Shown here: in pieces, positions 10,305-16,597 of the stretch
Position numbering within the stretch: position 1 is the first letter of the stretch
Layout: every line of letters starts with the position of its first letter
Assembly (NCBI GenBank): GCA_034401135.1
Contig: JAWZSP010000006.1
Coordinates: 2,790,001-2,854,000 of the forward strand
DNA from: Volutella citrinella
Lineage: Eukaryota; Ascomycota; Sordariomycetes; Hypocreales; Nectriaceae
Direction of reading: 5' to 3'
Length of the DNA stretch: 64,000 nucleotides
Position numbers and translations under genes: made by a program
The notes under the pieces: model-generated
The model's input: only the letters and a program-made list of their open reading frames with translations
Database searches by the model: none
What the model was told of the DNA's origin: nothing

Positions 10305-11324
10305 TTACATACAACCTAGTCGAGCAATAATTTGGCCGCTATTATCGACAATGATCAACGGATTGCTCGCTTGTCGACGCGGAGGCCGAGGCGGAAGTGG
10401 CGGCGGCGGCGGGCCAACATCTGAAGACGCCCTTTGTCGGTTGTGAATGACTGGCTGCAGATGGGTTCGCTGAGGCCTTTGGGCTGCCTGGGATTCAAAT
10501 CTGGGAGCAGCTTGTGTCCTCCTAGCAGGCGAGGGCTCTCCGGGCCTTTCCAGGGCACCGCGCTTGACGCCCCGGGCTGGGGCTTGCGGTCCGGCTGGCG
10601 GCGCCGGGCTGCGATTCCTCGCTGCAGGTTCCGTGGCCTTTGCTGGTGATGTTTTGCGCTGGTTACCTTGCTGCTTCTTCGGGGCCGGCACGAAGGGCCG
10701 GACGCAGTTGCTGATGTAGTCCTGGCCCATGCCAAGGGCCTTTGCGTCGACGAGCCCCATGTTGATGCGGTGCACGTACTCGTCCTTGGGCTTGCTGTCG
10801 ACAATGAAGTTGCGGCTCACGTAGACGAGGACGTTTTGCTGCCATTGCTTCGGTTGCTGGACAGCCAGCTGCCCATCTTCCTTAGCCTGGCGGCATACCT
10901 TGGCCGGGCCGCCCTTGTCGACGATCCAGCTCGTCGGTCTGCGATACAACGGTGCCAGGGCGGGCGAGACGAGGACGGGCATGTAGTGCTTTGCGTAGGC
11001 GTTCTTGGAGACGCCCTCATTGATGTCGAGCCGGGCCTCGTCCTGCTCGTCAATCTCATACACCAGACCGTCGACCCAGTGGCCCTCGGCCTCGATGACA
11101 TTTGCGTACCCACGCTCGTTGATCTGCCAGCGGTGGTGGTATAGCCGCGCGCAACCGATGTACTTGCTCCCGGGACACCGGCGCTTCATCTGTCGGAGGT
11201 GGAGGTTGCTCCCGTATGCGAAGTAGTACTTGCACTTGGACGGCGGCCGGGAGTCTCCGGCCGATGGCCCGGCGACCTGCTGGGCCATGTCGCGGAGCAC
11301 GCGGAGGTAGGATGCCCCGGACAT
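10305..11324 (-). CDS. Gamma-glutamylcyclotransferase-like protein with Pro/Arg-rich tail
   Basis: This single-exon gene encodes 339 residues. The GGCT fold shows YFAYGSNL (YGSN at residues 37-40), the loop that binds the gamma-glutamyl carboxylate, and LDINEGV with Glu103 in the place of the catalytic Glu of human GGCT (LDEQEGV). Enzymes of this fold release 5-oxoproline from gamma-glutamyl amines or peptides. The domain ends near residue 210. The remaining roughly 130 residues are low-complexity, rich in Pro, Arg, Gln and Ala, with a proline run near the C-terminus, and are probably disordered. The start at 11324 (MSGASYL) is chosen because the open frame upstream to 11507 is composition-poor and starts far from the domain; Met13 is another candidate. 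The gene ends 171 bp from the converging coiled-coil gene and is divergent from an amidoligase. The substrate is unknown. Confidence 0.82.
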   Translation of the reverse strand: MSGASYLRVLRDMAQQVAGPSAGDSRPPSKCKYYFAYGSNLHLRQMKRRCPGSKYIGCARLYHHRWQINERGYANVIEAEGHWVDGLVYEIDEQDEARLDINEGVSKNAYAKHYMPVLVSPALAPLYRRPTSWIVDKGGPAKVCRQAKEDGQLAVQQPKQWQQNVLVYVSRNFIVDSKPKDEYVHRINMGLVDAKALGMGQDYISNCVRPFVPAPKKQQGNQRKTSPAKATEPAARNRSPAPPAGPQAPARGVKRGALERPGEPSPARRTQAAPRFESQAAQRPQRTHLQPVIHNRQRASSDVGPPPPPLPPRPPRRQASNPLIIVDNSGQIIARLGCM

Positions 11325-12264
11325 CCGATAGGTAGGATAGGGGAAAGGGGGTGAAGCGGCAGACCAGCACCAGAAGACTGGCAAATAGTGGGCGAGTGTG
11401 TAAGTCAGGAAGCGGGGACGGTTGTTGTTTGTTGCTGATGGATTTAGCGTCGAGGTCTGAATAACGGGAACGAGGTTTGAGTGGAAGAAAGCACCGTCGG
11501 CTGGCACGAGGCGGGCTAAGACGACGTCTTCTCTGTCGTCGAGGCCTCACAGCGTCATAGTCACCGCGTAACGTCTCGCCCCGTTGTCTGCAGCATCCTT
11601 CATCAAGGTGAGGCGTCGACAGAATGGAGCCGGCCTTGCATACATTGGGCAGCAAAGAAAGGCGTGTCCCCGTCAAAGCGGCGCCCCCGGAGCCAATTGC
11701 CGCCCACCACGTCCGGGCCAGGCACCCATCGAGGCCGCTAGCGGGCCTTCTCCAGGTCCCGGGGCAGGCAGCGAGGCCACCCGGTGGCGCTTGGCCCCTT
11801 GGGAGCCAGTGGAGCGTACCTGGAGACGCTGGAGGTCCAGTCCATCGGGCATCGGGCTCCACCGACCGGGGCACCCTCCCGGAGCGGGACCCACTGGCTG
11901 CAGGAGGGCAGACCGCACATTCAGCACCACGAGGCTGGATACGTGAAAAATGGCTCGACGGGCCTTGGTGGCAGAGCTGGGCGGCGGTGTCTGATTTGCT
12001 TCTCTGTGTTGTGAGTGAGACACCGTCAGATGCAGGCCAGGTCACGCGCTCCTCGTGCTCCGACAACGCCGTCGAATCCTGTGTGGACGAGGCGACCACG
12101 GCAATGTGATGAGTCTGTTTGCTTATATCCTGTGCGACGAAAGGCCGTTTTGTAAAGAAGTGCATATGATCCAACAGCCGGTGCACTCCCTCTTCAAAGA
12201 ACTGTGAACTTGGATTCAGTCTCTCGCCGGTTGTTGTTGTCGAGCCAGTCCCCCTCCCCCAGCC
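11325..12264. promoter_or_regulatory. Divergent upstream region between cyclotransferase-like and amidoligase genes
   Basis: The 940 bp between the two start codons are GC-rich in the middle and contain long chance reading frames on both strands but no recognisable protein. Both promoters must lie here or nearby. I see no clear tandem repeat or palindrome that would mark a shared regulator site. Confidence 0.5.
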
Positions 12265-13391
12265 ATGCCCAGAGACTTCAACTTCGGCGTGGAGATCGAG
12301 GCCATCGCCAGGCCGTACGGAGGAACAGAGACGTTTACAAATGTCGACTGGTACCGTCTGCTGGCCCAGAAGCTACGCAACCGGGATATTGATGCCGTCC
12401 ACGATGACAACTCCAAGTACAGCAAACACCCAGAGTACTACGGCGGCAAGTGGTTCGTCACTCGTGATGGCTCCCTAAAGCGTCCTCGGCCCTTTGGTAT
12501 GCATTTGACAGTTTTCTTTGTTCGCTTGATAATCCATAGGGCGGTGCCGTGGACGTGTCCCACGCCATGTCGTCGCCGTGTTGCGAGCTGATGCTGACAT
12601 CCCCGTCCCTTTAAGTGTGCATGGAGGTCGTCTCCCCGCGACTCGACACTACACAGCCCATCAGCACCATCCTGGGAGATTTCTGGGAGGCCATGCGAGT
12701 GCACTTCAACCCACAGCGCGACATCTCGTGCGGCGGCCACGTCCACGTCACCCCCGTGAGCCTCAACAACAAGTTCTCCCTCCGCTCCCTCAAGAAGATT
12801 GCCTTTGCCACAGCCGCCTACGAAGACTACGTGGCGGCCGTCCTACCGCCCGCGCGCCGCGAGAACCAGTACTGCAAGGCCAACTCCAAGAGCGAGGAGT
12901 CGGGCCTGAGGGAGACGCTGCTGTGGGGGAAGAGCTCGCATGCTCTCGCGCTCGTCGCGTCCGAGATATTGGCCAAGGACAACGAGACGGAGCTGTACTT
13001 TTACATGCAAGGCAGCCGCTACGTGCTGTGGAACTTTCAGAACATCTTTCCCAACCCAAAGACCGGGCGTTGCACGGGGACCGTCGAGTTCCGCGGCGGC
13101 AACCAGTTCCTCAACACCCGCGGGACGCTCGCGTGGGTGGCCTTCGTGCTGGGCTTCATCAGCCTTGCGATGGACGAGGTTCGTTCACCCCCCTGATTTA
13201 TTCCCAGTAGCTTCCCTTGTCTAATACTTGTCCAGAATCTGGTGAAAAAGTTCACGACATATGTGCACCCGTCGGAGCCCAGCTTCGAGAACAAGCTCGA
13301 GGACTGGTGGAAGAAGATCCGGAAAGCAGCAAGGAAGCATCGGCTGAGCCGATACCTCCCCGAAGACTACAAAAAGATGCATACAAGGTAG
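12265..13391 (+). CDS. Amidoligase-family enzyme (glutamine-synthetase fold, Amidoligase_2-like)
   Basis: Three exons (12265-12496, 12616-13178 and 13236-13391) join in frame to 316 residues. The hallmarks of the COOH-NH2 ligases of the glutamine-synthetase fold are visible. These are FGVEIE at residues 7-12 (metal-binding acidic strand), SCGGHVHV at 115-122 and TVEFRGG at 233-239, with RYVLWNFQNI between the last two. Such enzymes use ATP to join a carboxylate to an amine; the fungal members have no established substrate. The C-terminal roughly 50 residues are basic (KKIRKAARKHR) and lie in the last exon. No signal peptide or membrane segment is seen, so a cytosolic or nuclear place is likely. 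It is divergent from a gamma-glutamylcyclotransferase-like gene and converges with mccA, 308 bp away. The family call is firm; the reaction is inferred. Confidence 0.85.
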
Positions 13392-13699: not shown

Positions 13700-15984
13700 T
13701 TATTCTTCCTTGGTCTCGCCCTCTTCGAAAAGAACCAGAACAGTTCCTGCCTTGCAGATATCCTAGAGACCAGTTAGGCTATGAGTGGATGTTGGGTTGG
13801 CTCAAATCACTTACCCCTTCTTTGTGAGCAAGCTTCTTAACCACGCCGTCTTGTGGTGATCGGATTACAGTCTCCATCTTCATCGACTCGATGCTGAAAC
13901 GATATTAGTATAGCATTCTTTCCAGAGAGCAACGACGGGGCCACTTACACAACCAGCGGCTCGCCCTTCTTCACCGTCTGTCCTTCTACGACCTCATTCC
14001 GTAGCACCTTGCACGGCATGGGCGCAGCCACGGACGATGCAATCTCCTTGAGGCCAAGAGCCTTCTCGTACCACTGCGGCGGCAGGAGGGCCAGGTCAGT
14101 CTTGATGCCGTGCTGGAAAATGGTAACCTTGGTGTCGTTGTCTGCAATCTGCGGCACCACCGACGACGAGATGCGCTCCGCCGGGAAGTACGACTCGAGC
14201 TTCATGACCTCGCCCTCGGGCTCCGGCTGGCAGGCAACGTTGGCAAAGGCCCCCGACTCGCCGTCGCCCTTCCGCGCCACAGAGACGTTGAACAGGTTGT
14301 GGCCCGCCTGGGTGACGCTGACCTCGACGATCTCGCCGTCCTTTGCGCTGTAGCCGTCGAGGACCTTGAACGCCACCTTGCGCTCAGCAAACGTCTTCGC
14401 CTCGCTGAAGCCGAGCGTCTGGCCGTGGGGCGGCGAGTTCCCCAGCTCGGCGTTGACCACGCCCAGCGCGGCCTGGGCGAAGACCTCGTTCCTGATGTGA
14501 CGAGGCTTGAAGAGCTCGTCCCTCCACTTGTCGATGAAGCCCGTCTCGACGTCGCCCTCGATGAAGGCGTCCGTCTGGCAGAGGCGCTTCAGGAACTCGA
14601 CGTTGGTGCTGACGCCCACAATCTCGTAGTCGCGCAGGATCGTCTCCAGCCGAGCGATGGCCTGCTGTCGGGTGTCGCCGCGCACAATCAGCTTGGCAAT
14701 CATGCCGTCGTAGGCCTCGGAGATGGTGGCCCCGGAACGGAAGCCCCAGTCAAGACGGACGTCGTCGTTGAGGAGCTGCGGCGGCAGATAGGCGCGGACC
14801 AGCTTGCCAGAGTCCGGGAGGAATCCCTTCTCTGGGCTCTCGGCGTAGATGCGGGCTTCAATGGCGGCGCCCCGCTGGTTCATCTCCCTCTCGACTTCTT
14901 CCTGTGACAGGGGGAGCTTCTCGCCGGCGGCGATGCGGAACTGCCACTCGACCAAGTCCAGGCCAGTAACCATCTCCGTAACAGGGTGCTCGACCTGCAA
15001 CCGCGTGTTCATCTCCATAAAGTAGAACTTGTTGGTGTCCTTGTCTAGGATAAACTCGACCGTGCCGGCTCCGACGTACCCGACGGCAGATGCAGCCTGC
15101 CTGGCCTTGTTCCAAAGATCGTGTCGGGTTGCCTCATCCAGGTCGGGAGCAGGAGACTCCTCCAAGATCTTCTGGTGTCTTCGCTGCACACTGCAGTCTC
15201 TCTCGCCGAGCGCGACAGTGTTGCCCCATTTGTCGGCAAACACCTGCACTTCGACGTGTCTGGGGCGAATGATGTACTTCTCAACGAGCATGACCTCGCC
15301 GCCTTCTCCAAACGACGCCTTGGCCTCGAGCCGCGCGCTCTTGAGCTGGGACAGGAACTCGTCCTCTGTCAGGACAATTCGCATGCCCTTTCCGCCGCCG
15401 CCACGCACGCTCTTGAGCAGGACGGGAAAGGTGATGTTCTTGGCGTGCTGGAGGAGCTCCTGCTCGCCCTGCTCGGCGCCATGGTAGCCCGGGACACAAG
15501 GGACGCCGGCTTCGGTCATGATCTCCTTGCTCCGTGCCTTGTGGCCCATGTCGGCCATGGCAGTCGCAGGAGGCCCGACGAAAACGATGCCCTCCTCCTC
15601 GCAACGCTCGGCGAACTTGGAGTTCTCCGACAGGAATCCGTAGCCTGGATGCAGAGCCTGGATGCCATTCTGCTTGGCCAGAGCAATGATCTTCTCGCCG
15701 TCGAGGTACGCGTTCGCGGGGCCCAGGGCTAGCGACTGGAAGCCCGTCGAGGCGTGCCACGAGCCGGCGTCCACATCAGTGTAGACTGTGGTGGCGCGGA
15801 TGCCGAGACGCTCAGCAGTGCGGTTGATCCGGATGGCAATCTCGCCGCGATTGGCGATGAGGACGGAGCTGATGGGGGTGTGCTTGGGGGTAGCGGAAGA
15901 AGAAGCCGCGGCGGCGGTGGTGGTGGAGAGTAGACGAGGGAGCGGCTTCAAGGGCAGCCGACGGTTTGTGCGGAGGGAACGCAT
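13700..15984 (-). CDS. mccA: 3-methylcrotonyl-CoA carboxylase, biotin-carrying alpha subunit
   Basis: The mitochondrial enzyme of leucine breakdown carboxylates 3-methylcrotonyl-CoA; this subunit carboxylates and carries biotin. Exons 15984-13949, 13893-13815 and 13762-13700 give 725 residues. The N-terminus is Arg/Ser/Thr-rich without acids (RRLPLKPLPRLLST), a good mitochondrial presequence. Biotin-carboxylase features are LIANRGEIAIRI, HPGYGFLSEN, the ATP-grasp glycine loop GGGGKGM (195-201) and FMEMNTRLQVEHPVTE. A linker domain follows, then a biotinyl domain whose ESMKM carries the acceptor Lys684 in the short second exon. An in-frame ATG at 16056 would add 24 residues. I prefer 15984 because the presequence is then immediate, and because the extra codons run through a simple repeat. 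The beta subunit and isovaleryl-CoA dehydrogenase, which cluster with it in some fungi, are not neighbours here. Confidence 0.95.
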
Positions 15985-16597
15985 CTTTGGGGTGGGATGT
16001 CGGGTCTGAGTCGAGTCGAGTCGAGACGAGACGAGGCGATGCGGGTAAAGGGCCACGGTTCAGCGACTGGCGACAATGGGCAGCTTAAGAGTCGTCGTGG
16101 GCATTGGGCGAGGAGATCCAATGGGTTATGTCCTCGGCCAGATATGCCCTGCGATTGCCTTCGCTATGCCGCGAGCAATGCCGTCGGCCTTGAGCATGCC
16201 GGCAGAGGGCGAGCGTGACCGCGAGGAGCCGCAAGTAGCCGGGGCTGTTTTCGGGCCTGGCTGCCCCATTTCCCCAGACGGCCCGGCGCTGGGGTAGCTT
16301 GGGCTGCCGACGTCAGGTCACGTCACAGGGCGCTCCCAGCGCTGTCGTGCCCCGCAGTACAGTGGTCCTGTAGCGCAGTTCCCTCAGGTCTCCAACTCGC
16401 TTTGTGACTAAGCAAACCCGCCCCGCCTTGAGCCTCCCAGGCCTGTGCTGTGGGGCCTGGCTTGTGGTGCGGGGCAGACCTTTTGTCATCCAGGTGAGGG
16501 TGGTGACGGCGGGATGGGCGCCTCTTGTCTCCATCCACCTTGCGCGTAGCATCAACCACAGCTGCCATCCCTCGAGTATTGGCAGAGCCGCATCGAC
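15985..16597. promoter_or_regulatory. Divergent upstream region of mccA and PNPOx-like gene
   Basis: The 613 bp lie between two start codons pointing apart. Next to mccA is a short tandem repeat of TCGAG/ACGAG units (16011-16035). No other gene or RNA is visible. Confidence 0.45.
16011..16035. repeat. TCGAG/ACGAG pentamer repeat
   Basis: Three perfect TCGAG units are followed by two ACGAG units just upstream of the preferred mccA start. Their presence within the alternative N-terminal extension argues that this is leader rather than coding sequence. Confidence 0.85.

What the first reader, a model, noticed from the sequence alone, without database searches (positions are those of the whole stretch)
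10305..13391. Divergent pair of a GS-fold amidoligase and a gamma-glutamylcyclotransferase-like enzyme
Seen: both proteins keep their key residues (YGSN and Glu103 in one; FGVEIE, CGGHVHV and VEFRGG in the other), and their genes share a 940-bp upstream region. Known: in bacteria, amidoligases and GGCT-fold enzymes act together. In butirosin synthesis a ligase adds and BtrG removes a gamma-glutamyl group, and comparative-genomic work on amidoligases reported recurring links with such enzymes. Inference: this fungal pair may form a small pathway that makes and trims a gamma-glutamyl-type amide on a metabolite or peptide. I know of no described fungal system of this kind.
Basis: partly seen in the sequence, partly recalled or inferred. 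Interest (0 to 1): 0.75.

Follow-up and report, generated by a model that had tools for sequence, protein, structure and literature searches.

The report
Fungal amide-making and amide-trimming gene pair
A fungus carries, side by side, a gene for an enzyme that probably makes a glutamate-type amide bond and one for an enzyme that probably cuts such bonds, a partnership known in bacteria but hardly described in fungi, so its unknown product can now be looked for directly.

Summary
In detail: a 339-aa GGCT-fold protein (minus strand, 10305-11324) and a 316-aa Amidoligase_2 protein (plus strand, three exons, 12265-13391) diverge from 940 bp, with conserved catalytic motifs. The linkage is not chance. 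Where tags of both genes were printed for one genome, they were consecutive in 13 of 16. The same 45-Mb genome holds a second divergent pair, 750 bp apart, with a GGCT of another subfamily. In 291 Clostridia genomes, 40 of the 42 highest-scoring amidoligase matches have a GGCT within 2 kb, downstream on the same strand; the 40 I scored resemble the window's type. A bacterial link was published in 2008; my term searches of the held papers gave no fungal one, but the main 2009 survey could not be read. Best reading: a make-and-trim pair, in which the GS/GCL-fold ligase forms a gamma-glutamyl-type amide and the GGCT releases it as 5-oxoproline. Linkage, predicted folds and residues are shown; substrate, order and co-expression are inferred. 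Against it: 4 of 6 amidoligases and 3 of 5 GGCTs in this genome are unpaired, and adjacency of the window type is shown only in Hypocreales.

The parts
10305..11324 (-). GGCT-fold gene (gamma-glutamylcyclotransferase / AIG2-like), 339 aa; YGSN loop at residues 37-40, expected catalytic Glu103; confident part of the model about residues 30-215, low-confidence C-terminal tail
11288..11290 (-). region of a possible downstream start (Met13; its codon begins at 11288 and runs down to 11286) used in several relatives' gene models
11325..12264 (.). shared divergent intergenic region, 940 bp; only short repeats found
12265..12496 (+). amidoligase exon 1 (FGVEIE motif, E10 and E12)
12497..12615 (+). 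amidoligase intron 1 (GT...AG)
   Evidence: bridged by the relatives aligned
12616..13178 (+). amidoligase exon 2 (CGGHVHV, H119 and H121; GTVEFRGG, E235 and R237)
13179..13235 (+). amidoligase intron 2 (GT...AG)
13236..13391 (+). amidoligase exon 3 with stop

Best explanation
The two genes form a small coupled enzyme pair that makes and trims a gamma-glutamyl-type amide. The amidoligase, a GS/GCL-fold enzyme, would use ATP to activate a carboxylate (most likely the gamma-carboxylate of glutamate) as acyl phosphate and join it to an amine on a metabolite, amino acid or peptide. The GGCT would let the glutamyl amino group attack the amide, with Glu103 as general base, releasing the amine and 5-oxoproline. 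The pair thus adds and later removes a glutamyl cap, or keeps the conjugate in balance. Shown: gene models, family membership, conserved residues, predicted folds, repeated linkage in fungi and Clostridia. Inferred: that glutamate is the acyl donor, that both act on the same compound, their order, and co-regulation from the shared 940 bp.
Against: In this genome 4 of 6 amidoligases and 3 of 5 GGCTs have no such partner, so neither needs the other. In 3 of the 16 genomes the genes are not tag neighbours (13 and 26 tags apart, and one with different contigs; three Ophiocordyceps, ant-infecting as I recall). Of the 14 second-type ligase hits only 3 share a contig length with a listed GGCT (one contig shown per protein cluster). 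No Foldseek hit of the ligase reaches E 0.001 (best 4.8e-3) and no PDB sequence matches it even at E 10, so the glutamate-donor guess rests on fold alone. Clostridia are not independent samples: the 43 paired matches come from 28 genomes and may sit on spreading elements; 16 genomes have the ligase without and 25 the GGCT without the other family. No expression data. No control for ordinary gene-order conservation in Hypocreales.
Confidence: 0.55

Rival explanations
1. Clean-up or salvage pair: the ligase conjugates glutamate to toxic or surplus amines (as gamma-glutamylamide synthetases do), and the GGCT only recycles the conjugates or by-products; the product is not a dedicated natural product.
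Against: Those matches are lower than or tied with GCL and YbdK; a GGCT next to the ligase would simply undo its work unless separated in time or place.
Confidence: 0.2
2. Neighbours by descent only: the two genes are adjacent in Hypocreales because gene order is conserved, and they act separately (for example the GGCT on gamma-glutamyl amino acids from glutathione).
For: The adjacency shown for the window type is within Hypocreales; 3 of 16 genomes lack it; unpaired paralogues exist.
Against: A second pair with a different GGCT subfamily in the same genome and 40 of the 42 highest-scoring Clostridia matches with the same partner are hard to explain this way.
Confidence: 0.15
3. Protein tagging: the ligase puts a glutamyl or peptide mark on a protein, like PafA with Pup, and the GGCT removes it.
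For: PafA is among the Foldseek matches (4bjr E 2.0e-2); the GGCT has a long low-confidence tail with a recurrent proline-rich motif that could dock to proteins.
Against: Iyer et al. 2008 argued against tagging for the family that I take to be PF12224, because no small Pup-like ORF accompanies it (passage); GGCT active sites are small pockets for free gamma-glutamyl ends (recalled).
Confidence: 0.07

Closest known systems
Bacterial ligase / Aig2-family gamma-glutamyl cyclotransferase neighbourhood (Iyer, Burroughs, Aravind 2008, PMC2588565; passage read)
   Same: The same two families side by side (that its ligase family is PF12224 is my reading). The window's GGCT profile matches Clostridia partners strongly (hhalign with 6 of them: probability 98.9, E 1.6e-17, 31% identity; 40 of 40 scored partners reach 38.7 bits) and falls in one group with them in the tree (92/94, a group that also holds 7 of the 18 sampled GGCTs without a near ligase).
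   Different: In Clostridia the GGCT is downstream on the same strand in all 43 paired matches; in the fungus the genes diverge from a 940-bp region, the ligase has introns, and the GGCT has a long tail. The second fungal pair uses another GGCT subfamily.
Phage and element clusters with Amidoligase_2, COOH-NH2 ligase, GATase, ATP-grasp and GGCT (LUZ24, phiEco32, RIO-1; Tn6164; Arthrobacter AL phages)
   Same: Amidoligase and GGCT genes in the same stretch: annotated in 3 of the 5 phage regions that I opened (LUZ24 by a UPF0131 note, GGCT-like as I recall); passages.
   Different: The phage clusters carry further ligases and an amidotransferase; none was seen beside the fungal pair in the 10 long ORFs scanned.
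Butirosin BtrJ/BtrG (recalled)
   Same: Logic of adding and removing a gamma-glutamyl group; three of the 120 listed relatives of the window's GGCT are named BtrG-like.
   Different: BtrJ is an ATP-grasp ligase acting on a carrier-protein substrate (recalled), not a GS/GCL-fold enzyme.
Glutamate-cysteine ligase, YbdK, glutamine synthetase superfamily
   Different: No sequence match in the PDB even at E 10; substrate unknown.

Membership tests
PF12224 Amidoligase_2 | score above the curated cut-off over most of the profile | tested here: met
   54.8 bits against 22, profile 4-244 of 245; 32 of 32 aligned relatives match
PF12224 Amidoligase_2 | ATP-dependent amide ligation | not testable with these tools
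   no assay; Pfam calls the family putative
GS/GCL carboxylate-amine ligase superfamily | shared fold | tested here: met
GS/GCL carboxylate-amine ligase superfamily | metal/ATP/substrate residues conserved | tested here: met
   E10, E12, H119, H121, R212, E235, R237 invariant in 32 sequences; E8, E10, H132, H134, E237, R239 in 6 of the second type. The roles are recalled, not tested
GGCT superfamily (PF06094) | score above cut-off and barrel fold | tested here: met
   39.2 bits against 22.8; human GGCT best by fold and by profile
GGCT superfamily (PF06094) | YGxx loop and catalytic Glu | tested here: met
   YGSN at 37-40 nearly invariant, E103 invariant in 36 sequences; the profile alignment puts this Glu on that of the EGV motif of human GGCT
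GGCT superfamily (PF06094) | releases 5-oxoproline from gamma-glutamyl compounds | not testable with these tools
   needs an assay
Bacterial amidoligase/Aig2 operon | the two families adjacent | tested here: met
   940 bp in the window; 750 bp in the second pair
Bacterial amidoligase/Aig2 operon | same strand, GGCT downstream | tested here: not met
   divergent in the fungus; 43 of 43 paired Clostridia matches are downstream on the same strand
Bacterial amidoligase/Aig2 operon | same GGCT subfamily | tested here: met
   window type and bacterial partners in one group, 92/94, just under the tool's mark of 95/80, with long branches elsewhere; profile probability 98.9; the second fungal pair's GGCT lies on the other side of the 99/96 split
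Butirosin-type BtrJ/BtrG system | ATP-grasp ligase | tested here: not met
   the ligase is PF12224 with GS/GCL fold
Butirosin-type BtrJ/BtrG system | carrier protein substrate | not tested
   only 10 ORFs of 264 aa or more in the window were scanned; a small carrier gene would be missed
Pupylation (PafA/Pup) | small Pup-like ORF nearby | not tested
   not searched

The most novel reading that the evidence does not exclude
Filamentous fungi assembled an amidoligase plus cyclotransferase make-and-trim pathway at least twice, once from the same GGCT subfamily that accompanies the ligase in Clostridia (perhaps an ancient transfer of the bacterial pair, later turned into a divergent gene pair) and once with a GGCT of a quite different subfamily, and the pairs produce a still unknown class of gamma-glutamyl-capped metabolites or peptides; the second pair even appears to move between fungal species as a unit.
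Probability: 0.22. Interest if true: 0.75.

Novelty: new variant of a known kind. Interest (0 to 1): 0.5.

Why it matters
It turns two 'putative' fungal enzyme families into one testable hypothesis. If one enzyme makes what the other trims, a pair of single knockouts and a metabolite screen for gamma-glutamyl conjugates would reveal a substrate of Amidoligase_2, for which I saw no substrate in the passages I read. The recurrence of the pairing in Clostridia, phages and twice in one fungal genome suggests a chemistry used across domains and not yet named.

Tried and rejected
Recollection corrected: I first recalled (note) that the Pfam text placed the Aig2 link in fungi; the source passage says firmicutes, and its main text has neither 'fungi' nor 'fungal'.

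No PDB sequence relative of the ligase was found. NCBIfam gave nothing for the four proteins tried. The second-type GGCT has no tblastn match in phages. The LUZ24 ligase found no relative in genome contigs, and the profile comparison of the window-type ligase with it is weak (probability 27.6). A paper search for F. graminearum tags at and beside the GGCT relative found nothing; one broad search listed no paper that holds 'amidoligase' (15 of 4,225 listed). The Epichloe 'putative amidoligase' absent in 4 of 12 asexual strains (PMC8982410, passages) and the Sclerotinia/Botrytis enrichment (PMC3158057, passage) could not be tied to this subfamily.

A sigma-70 and terminator scan of the intergenic region has no meaning for a fungus and is not used. 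In one search a motif tally by regular expression was faulty and is not used. In one search I scored 40 of the 44 GGCT matches lying within 3.5 kb of one of 40 high-scoring ligases (four second copies left out) and all 38 others; a ligase at 2.6 kb (G281) was not in the list used there, so its GGCT stands among the 'others'. Of the 38 others 19 reach 20 bits and 8 reach 50 bits, so the window type is not confined to ligase neighbours. For the Clostridia alignments my script picked up only 10 ligases and 6 GGCTs from 20 loci. The tree used 14 of 40 partners and 18 of 32 usable others, drawn at random; the tool warned of long branches that meet. The amidoligase side does not discriminate the origins: window type against Clostridia probability 98.0, against the second fungal type 97.8.

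Considered and rejected: fragment or pseudogene (frames open, residues conserved); bacterial contamination (introns, fungal relatives).

Full report
Observation. The stretch 10305-13391 holds two divergent fungal genes. The plus-strand gene has three exons (12265-12496, 12616-13178, 13236-13391) and codes for 316 aa; the minus-strand gene (11324 to 10305) codes for 339 aa. Pfam assigns PF12224 Amidoligase_2 (E 1.6e-14) and PF06094 GGACT (E 1.2e-9). The window is C6:2790001-2854000 of a 45.1-Mb assembly in 26 contigs. By its nearest relatives the fungus belongs to the Hypocreales, near Neonectria and Fusarium (inference).

Conservation. Among the 120 of 141 ligase hits that were listed, the full-length ones from Hypocreales have 59-80% identity, and Lasiosphaeris, Delitschia, Elaphomyces and Clarireedia have 45-53%. 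In an alignment of 32 of them E10, E12, H119, H121, R212, E235 and R237 are invariant. For the GGCT (120 of 402 hits listed) an alignment of 35 with the window's protein keeps E103 in all and YGSN nearly so. Profile alignment places this Glu on that of the EGV motif of human GGCT.

Linkage in fungi. Locus tags printed allow a test in 16 genomes with one tag prefix for both genes: 13 are consecutive (Neonectria ditissima, Cosmosporella (numbered in tens), Fusarium zealandicum, Stylonectria, Paramyrothecium, Hirsutella minnesotensis, Conoideocrella, Tolypocladium, Claviceps maximensis and C. citrina, Ophiocordyceps australis, Drechmeria, Cladobotryum); three are not (O. polyrhachis-furcata 13 apart, O. 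camponoti-saundersi 26 apart, O. unilateralis on different contigs). Contig lengths used as fingerprints agree for 38 contigs between the two lists of 120, 17 of them of at most 40 kb, against 0 to 2 agreements after each of 14 shifts of a few bases. This is adjacency or near-adjacency within one order; no background rate of gene-order conservation was available.

A second pair in the same genome. A Pfam search of the whole assembly finds six PF12224 places and five PF06094 places. Besides the window, one more of each lies on C7, divergent, 750 bp apart from ATG to ATG by the sequence. By arithmetic, 6 x 5 random genes in 45.1 Mb give about 0.002 pairs within 1.5 kb; two are seen. The second ligase is 23% identical to the first over 281 aa, and the two GGCTs show no BLAST similarity of note (E 0.68). 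The window-type profile gives the second GGCT 3 bits but gives two unpaired paralogues 188 and 125 bits. A profile comparison of the two GGCT types has probability 3.7. So the second pair is not a recent copy of the first. A joined query (105 hits) found relatives of both halves. Of the 14 hits with PF12224, three share a contig length with a listed GGCT: Fusarium bulbicola (consecutive tags FBULB1_5641/5640), Xylariales sp. AK1849, and a 1708-base metagenome contig. Four ligases and three GGCTs of this genome are unpaired.

Bacteria and phages. PMC2588565 (passage read) reports a ligase family, which I take to be PF12224, in conserved neighbourhoods with an Aig2-family cyclotransferase in firmicutes. 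I measured it: in 291 Clostridia genomes, 45 hold PF12224 and 54 hold PF06094, 29 both and 221 neither. Of 65 ligase matches (some are pieces of one gene) 43, from 28 genomes, have a GGCT within 2 kb, all downstream on the same strand, median gap 287 bases between the matched domains. Of the 42 matches with at least 159 bits it is 40; of the 23 weaker ones it is three, all pieces in one genome (G263). These genomes are not independent samples, as such elements may spread. Of five annotated phage regions opened, three show a GGCT near the ligase (LUZ24, phiEco32, RIO-1) and two (K4, CVT22) have none annotated. Printed cases, all seen as passages: Tn6164 Orf22/Orf23 (PMC3485107), Arthrobacter AL phages genes 97/98 (PMC5513430), C. 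clostridioforme prophages (PMC11318856), UFV-P2 (PMC3890496).

Which bacterial GGCTs? The window-type profile scores at least 38.7 bits on 40 of 40 scored GGCTs from beside a ligase (of 44), and at least 20 bits on 19 of 38 others, 8 of which reach 50. By hhalign it matches six Clostridia partners with probability 98.9. A tree of 53 GGCT domains splits (99/96) the second fungal type, with four bacterial GGCTs that lack a near ligase, from a side that holds the window type and the sampled bacterial partners. Those two fall in one group (92/94, not starred by the tool) that also holds 7 of the 18 sampled other bacterial GGCTs. Several branches are long and the alignment is short (148 columns kept). 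The ligase comparison does not discriminate. Common ancestry of the window pair with the bacterial pair, by transfer or otherwise, is possible and not shown.

Mechanism. The most likely reading is an ATP-dependent ligase that makes a gamma-glutamyl-type amide and a cyclotransferase that removes the glutamyl group as 5-oxoproline. If both ran at once they would waste ATP, so either a step intervenes between them or they are separated in time or place. The neighbourhood, as far as scanned (10 of 20 long ORFs: MEC1/ATR-type, biotin carboxylase, membrane transporter, kinase, arabinonolactone oxidase and others), gives no sign of a larger cluster. Substrate, order and co-expression are untested.

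Novelty. Both families and a bacterial linkage are known. A fungal linkage did not turn up in my term searches (listings and passages); Iyer et al. 2009 could not be read. I file it as a new variant of a known kind.

Noticed in passing
L012:2859-5113 (C7, about 3857358-3859612 of the assembly): The second pair is unusually close to Fusarium falciforme proteins (ligase 90% over 297 aa of my model, GGCT 93%) although the window's own ligase is only 76% identical to its F. solani relative. This fits a recent transfer of the pair as a unit, but the two F. falciforme proteins come from records with different tags, no DNA of that species or genome-wide control was available, and the flanking genes scanned look ordinary.
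   Followed up: partly
window 10305-10403 (end of the GGCT tail): The low-confidence tail carries a recurrent proline motif (P-x-LP-x-R in 20 of 36 aligned proteins), in 17 of these 20 as printed followed by a short hydrophobic-acidic stretch such as PIIVVEE; they resemble SH3-ligand and SUMO-interacting motifs (motif names recalled). Absent in the aligned Claviceps and Metarhizium relatives.
   Followed up: partly
window 11286-11324: Two in-frame starts for the GGCT; the stretch between them (MSG-S-LR-L--MA) is partly conserved in a few relatives, so an optional N-terminal leader is possible.
   Followed up: no
P0001-P0120: Many fungal Amidoligase_2 proteins are named 'Swim zinc finger domain protein' although only PF12224 is precomputed for them in the list; the name looks like copied annotation.
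   Followed up: no
L014, L015, L016, L013: Four further Amidoligase_2 genes in the same genome, one in an 837-aa open frame, without a PF06094 match near them.
   Followed up: partly
L114:3013-3705: Beyond a Clostridia amidoligase/GGCT pair lies a membrane protein that looks like a gene of a conjugative element (impression only), in line with the mobile-element cases in print.
   Followed up: no
window 13948-16059: A biotin carboxylase gene (PF00289, PF02786, PF02785) lies next to the ligase, tail to tail with it; useful as a synteny control.
   Followed up: no
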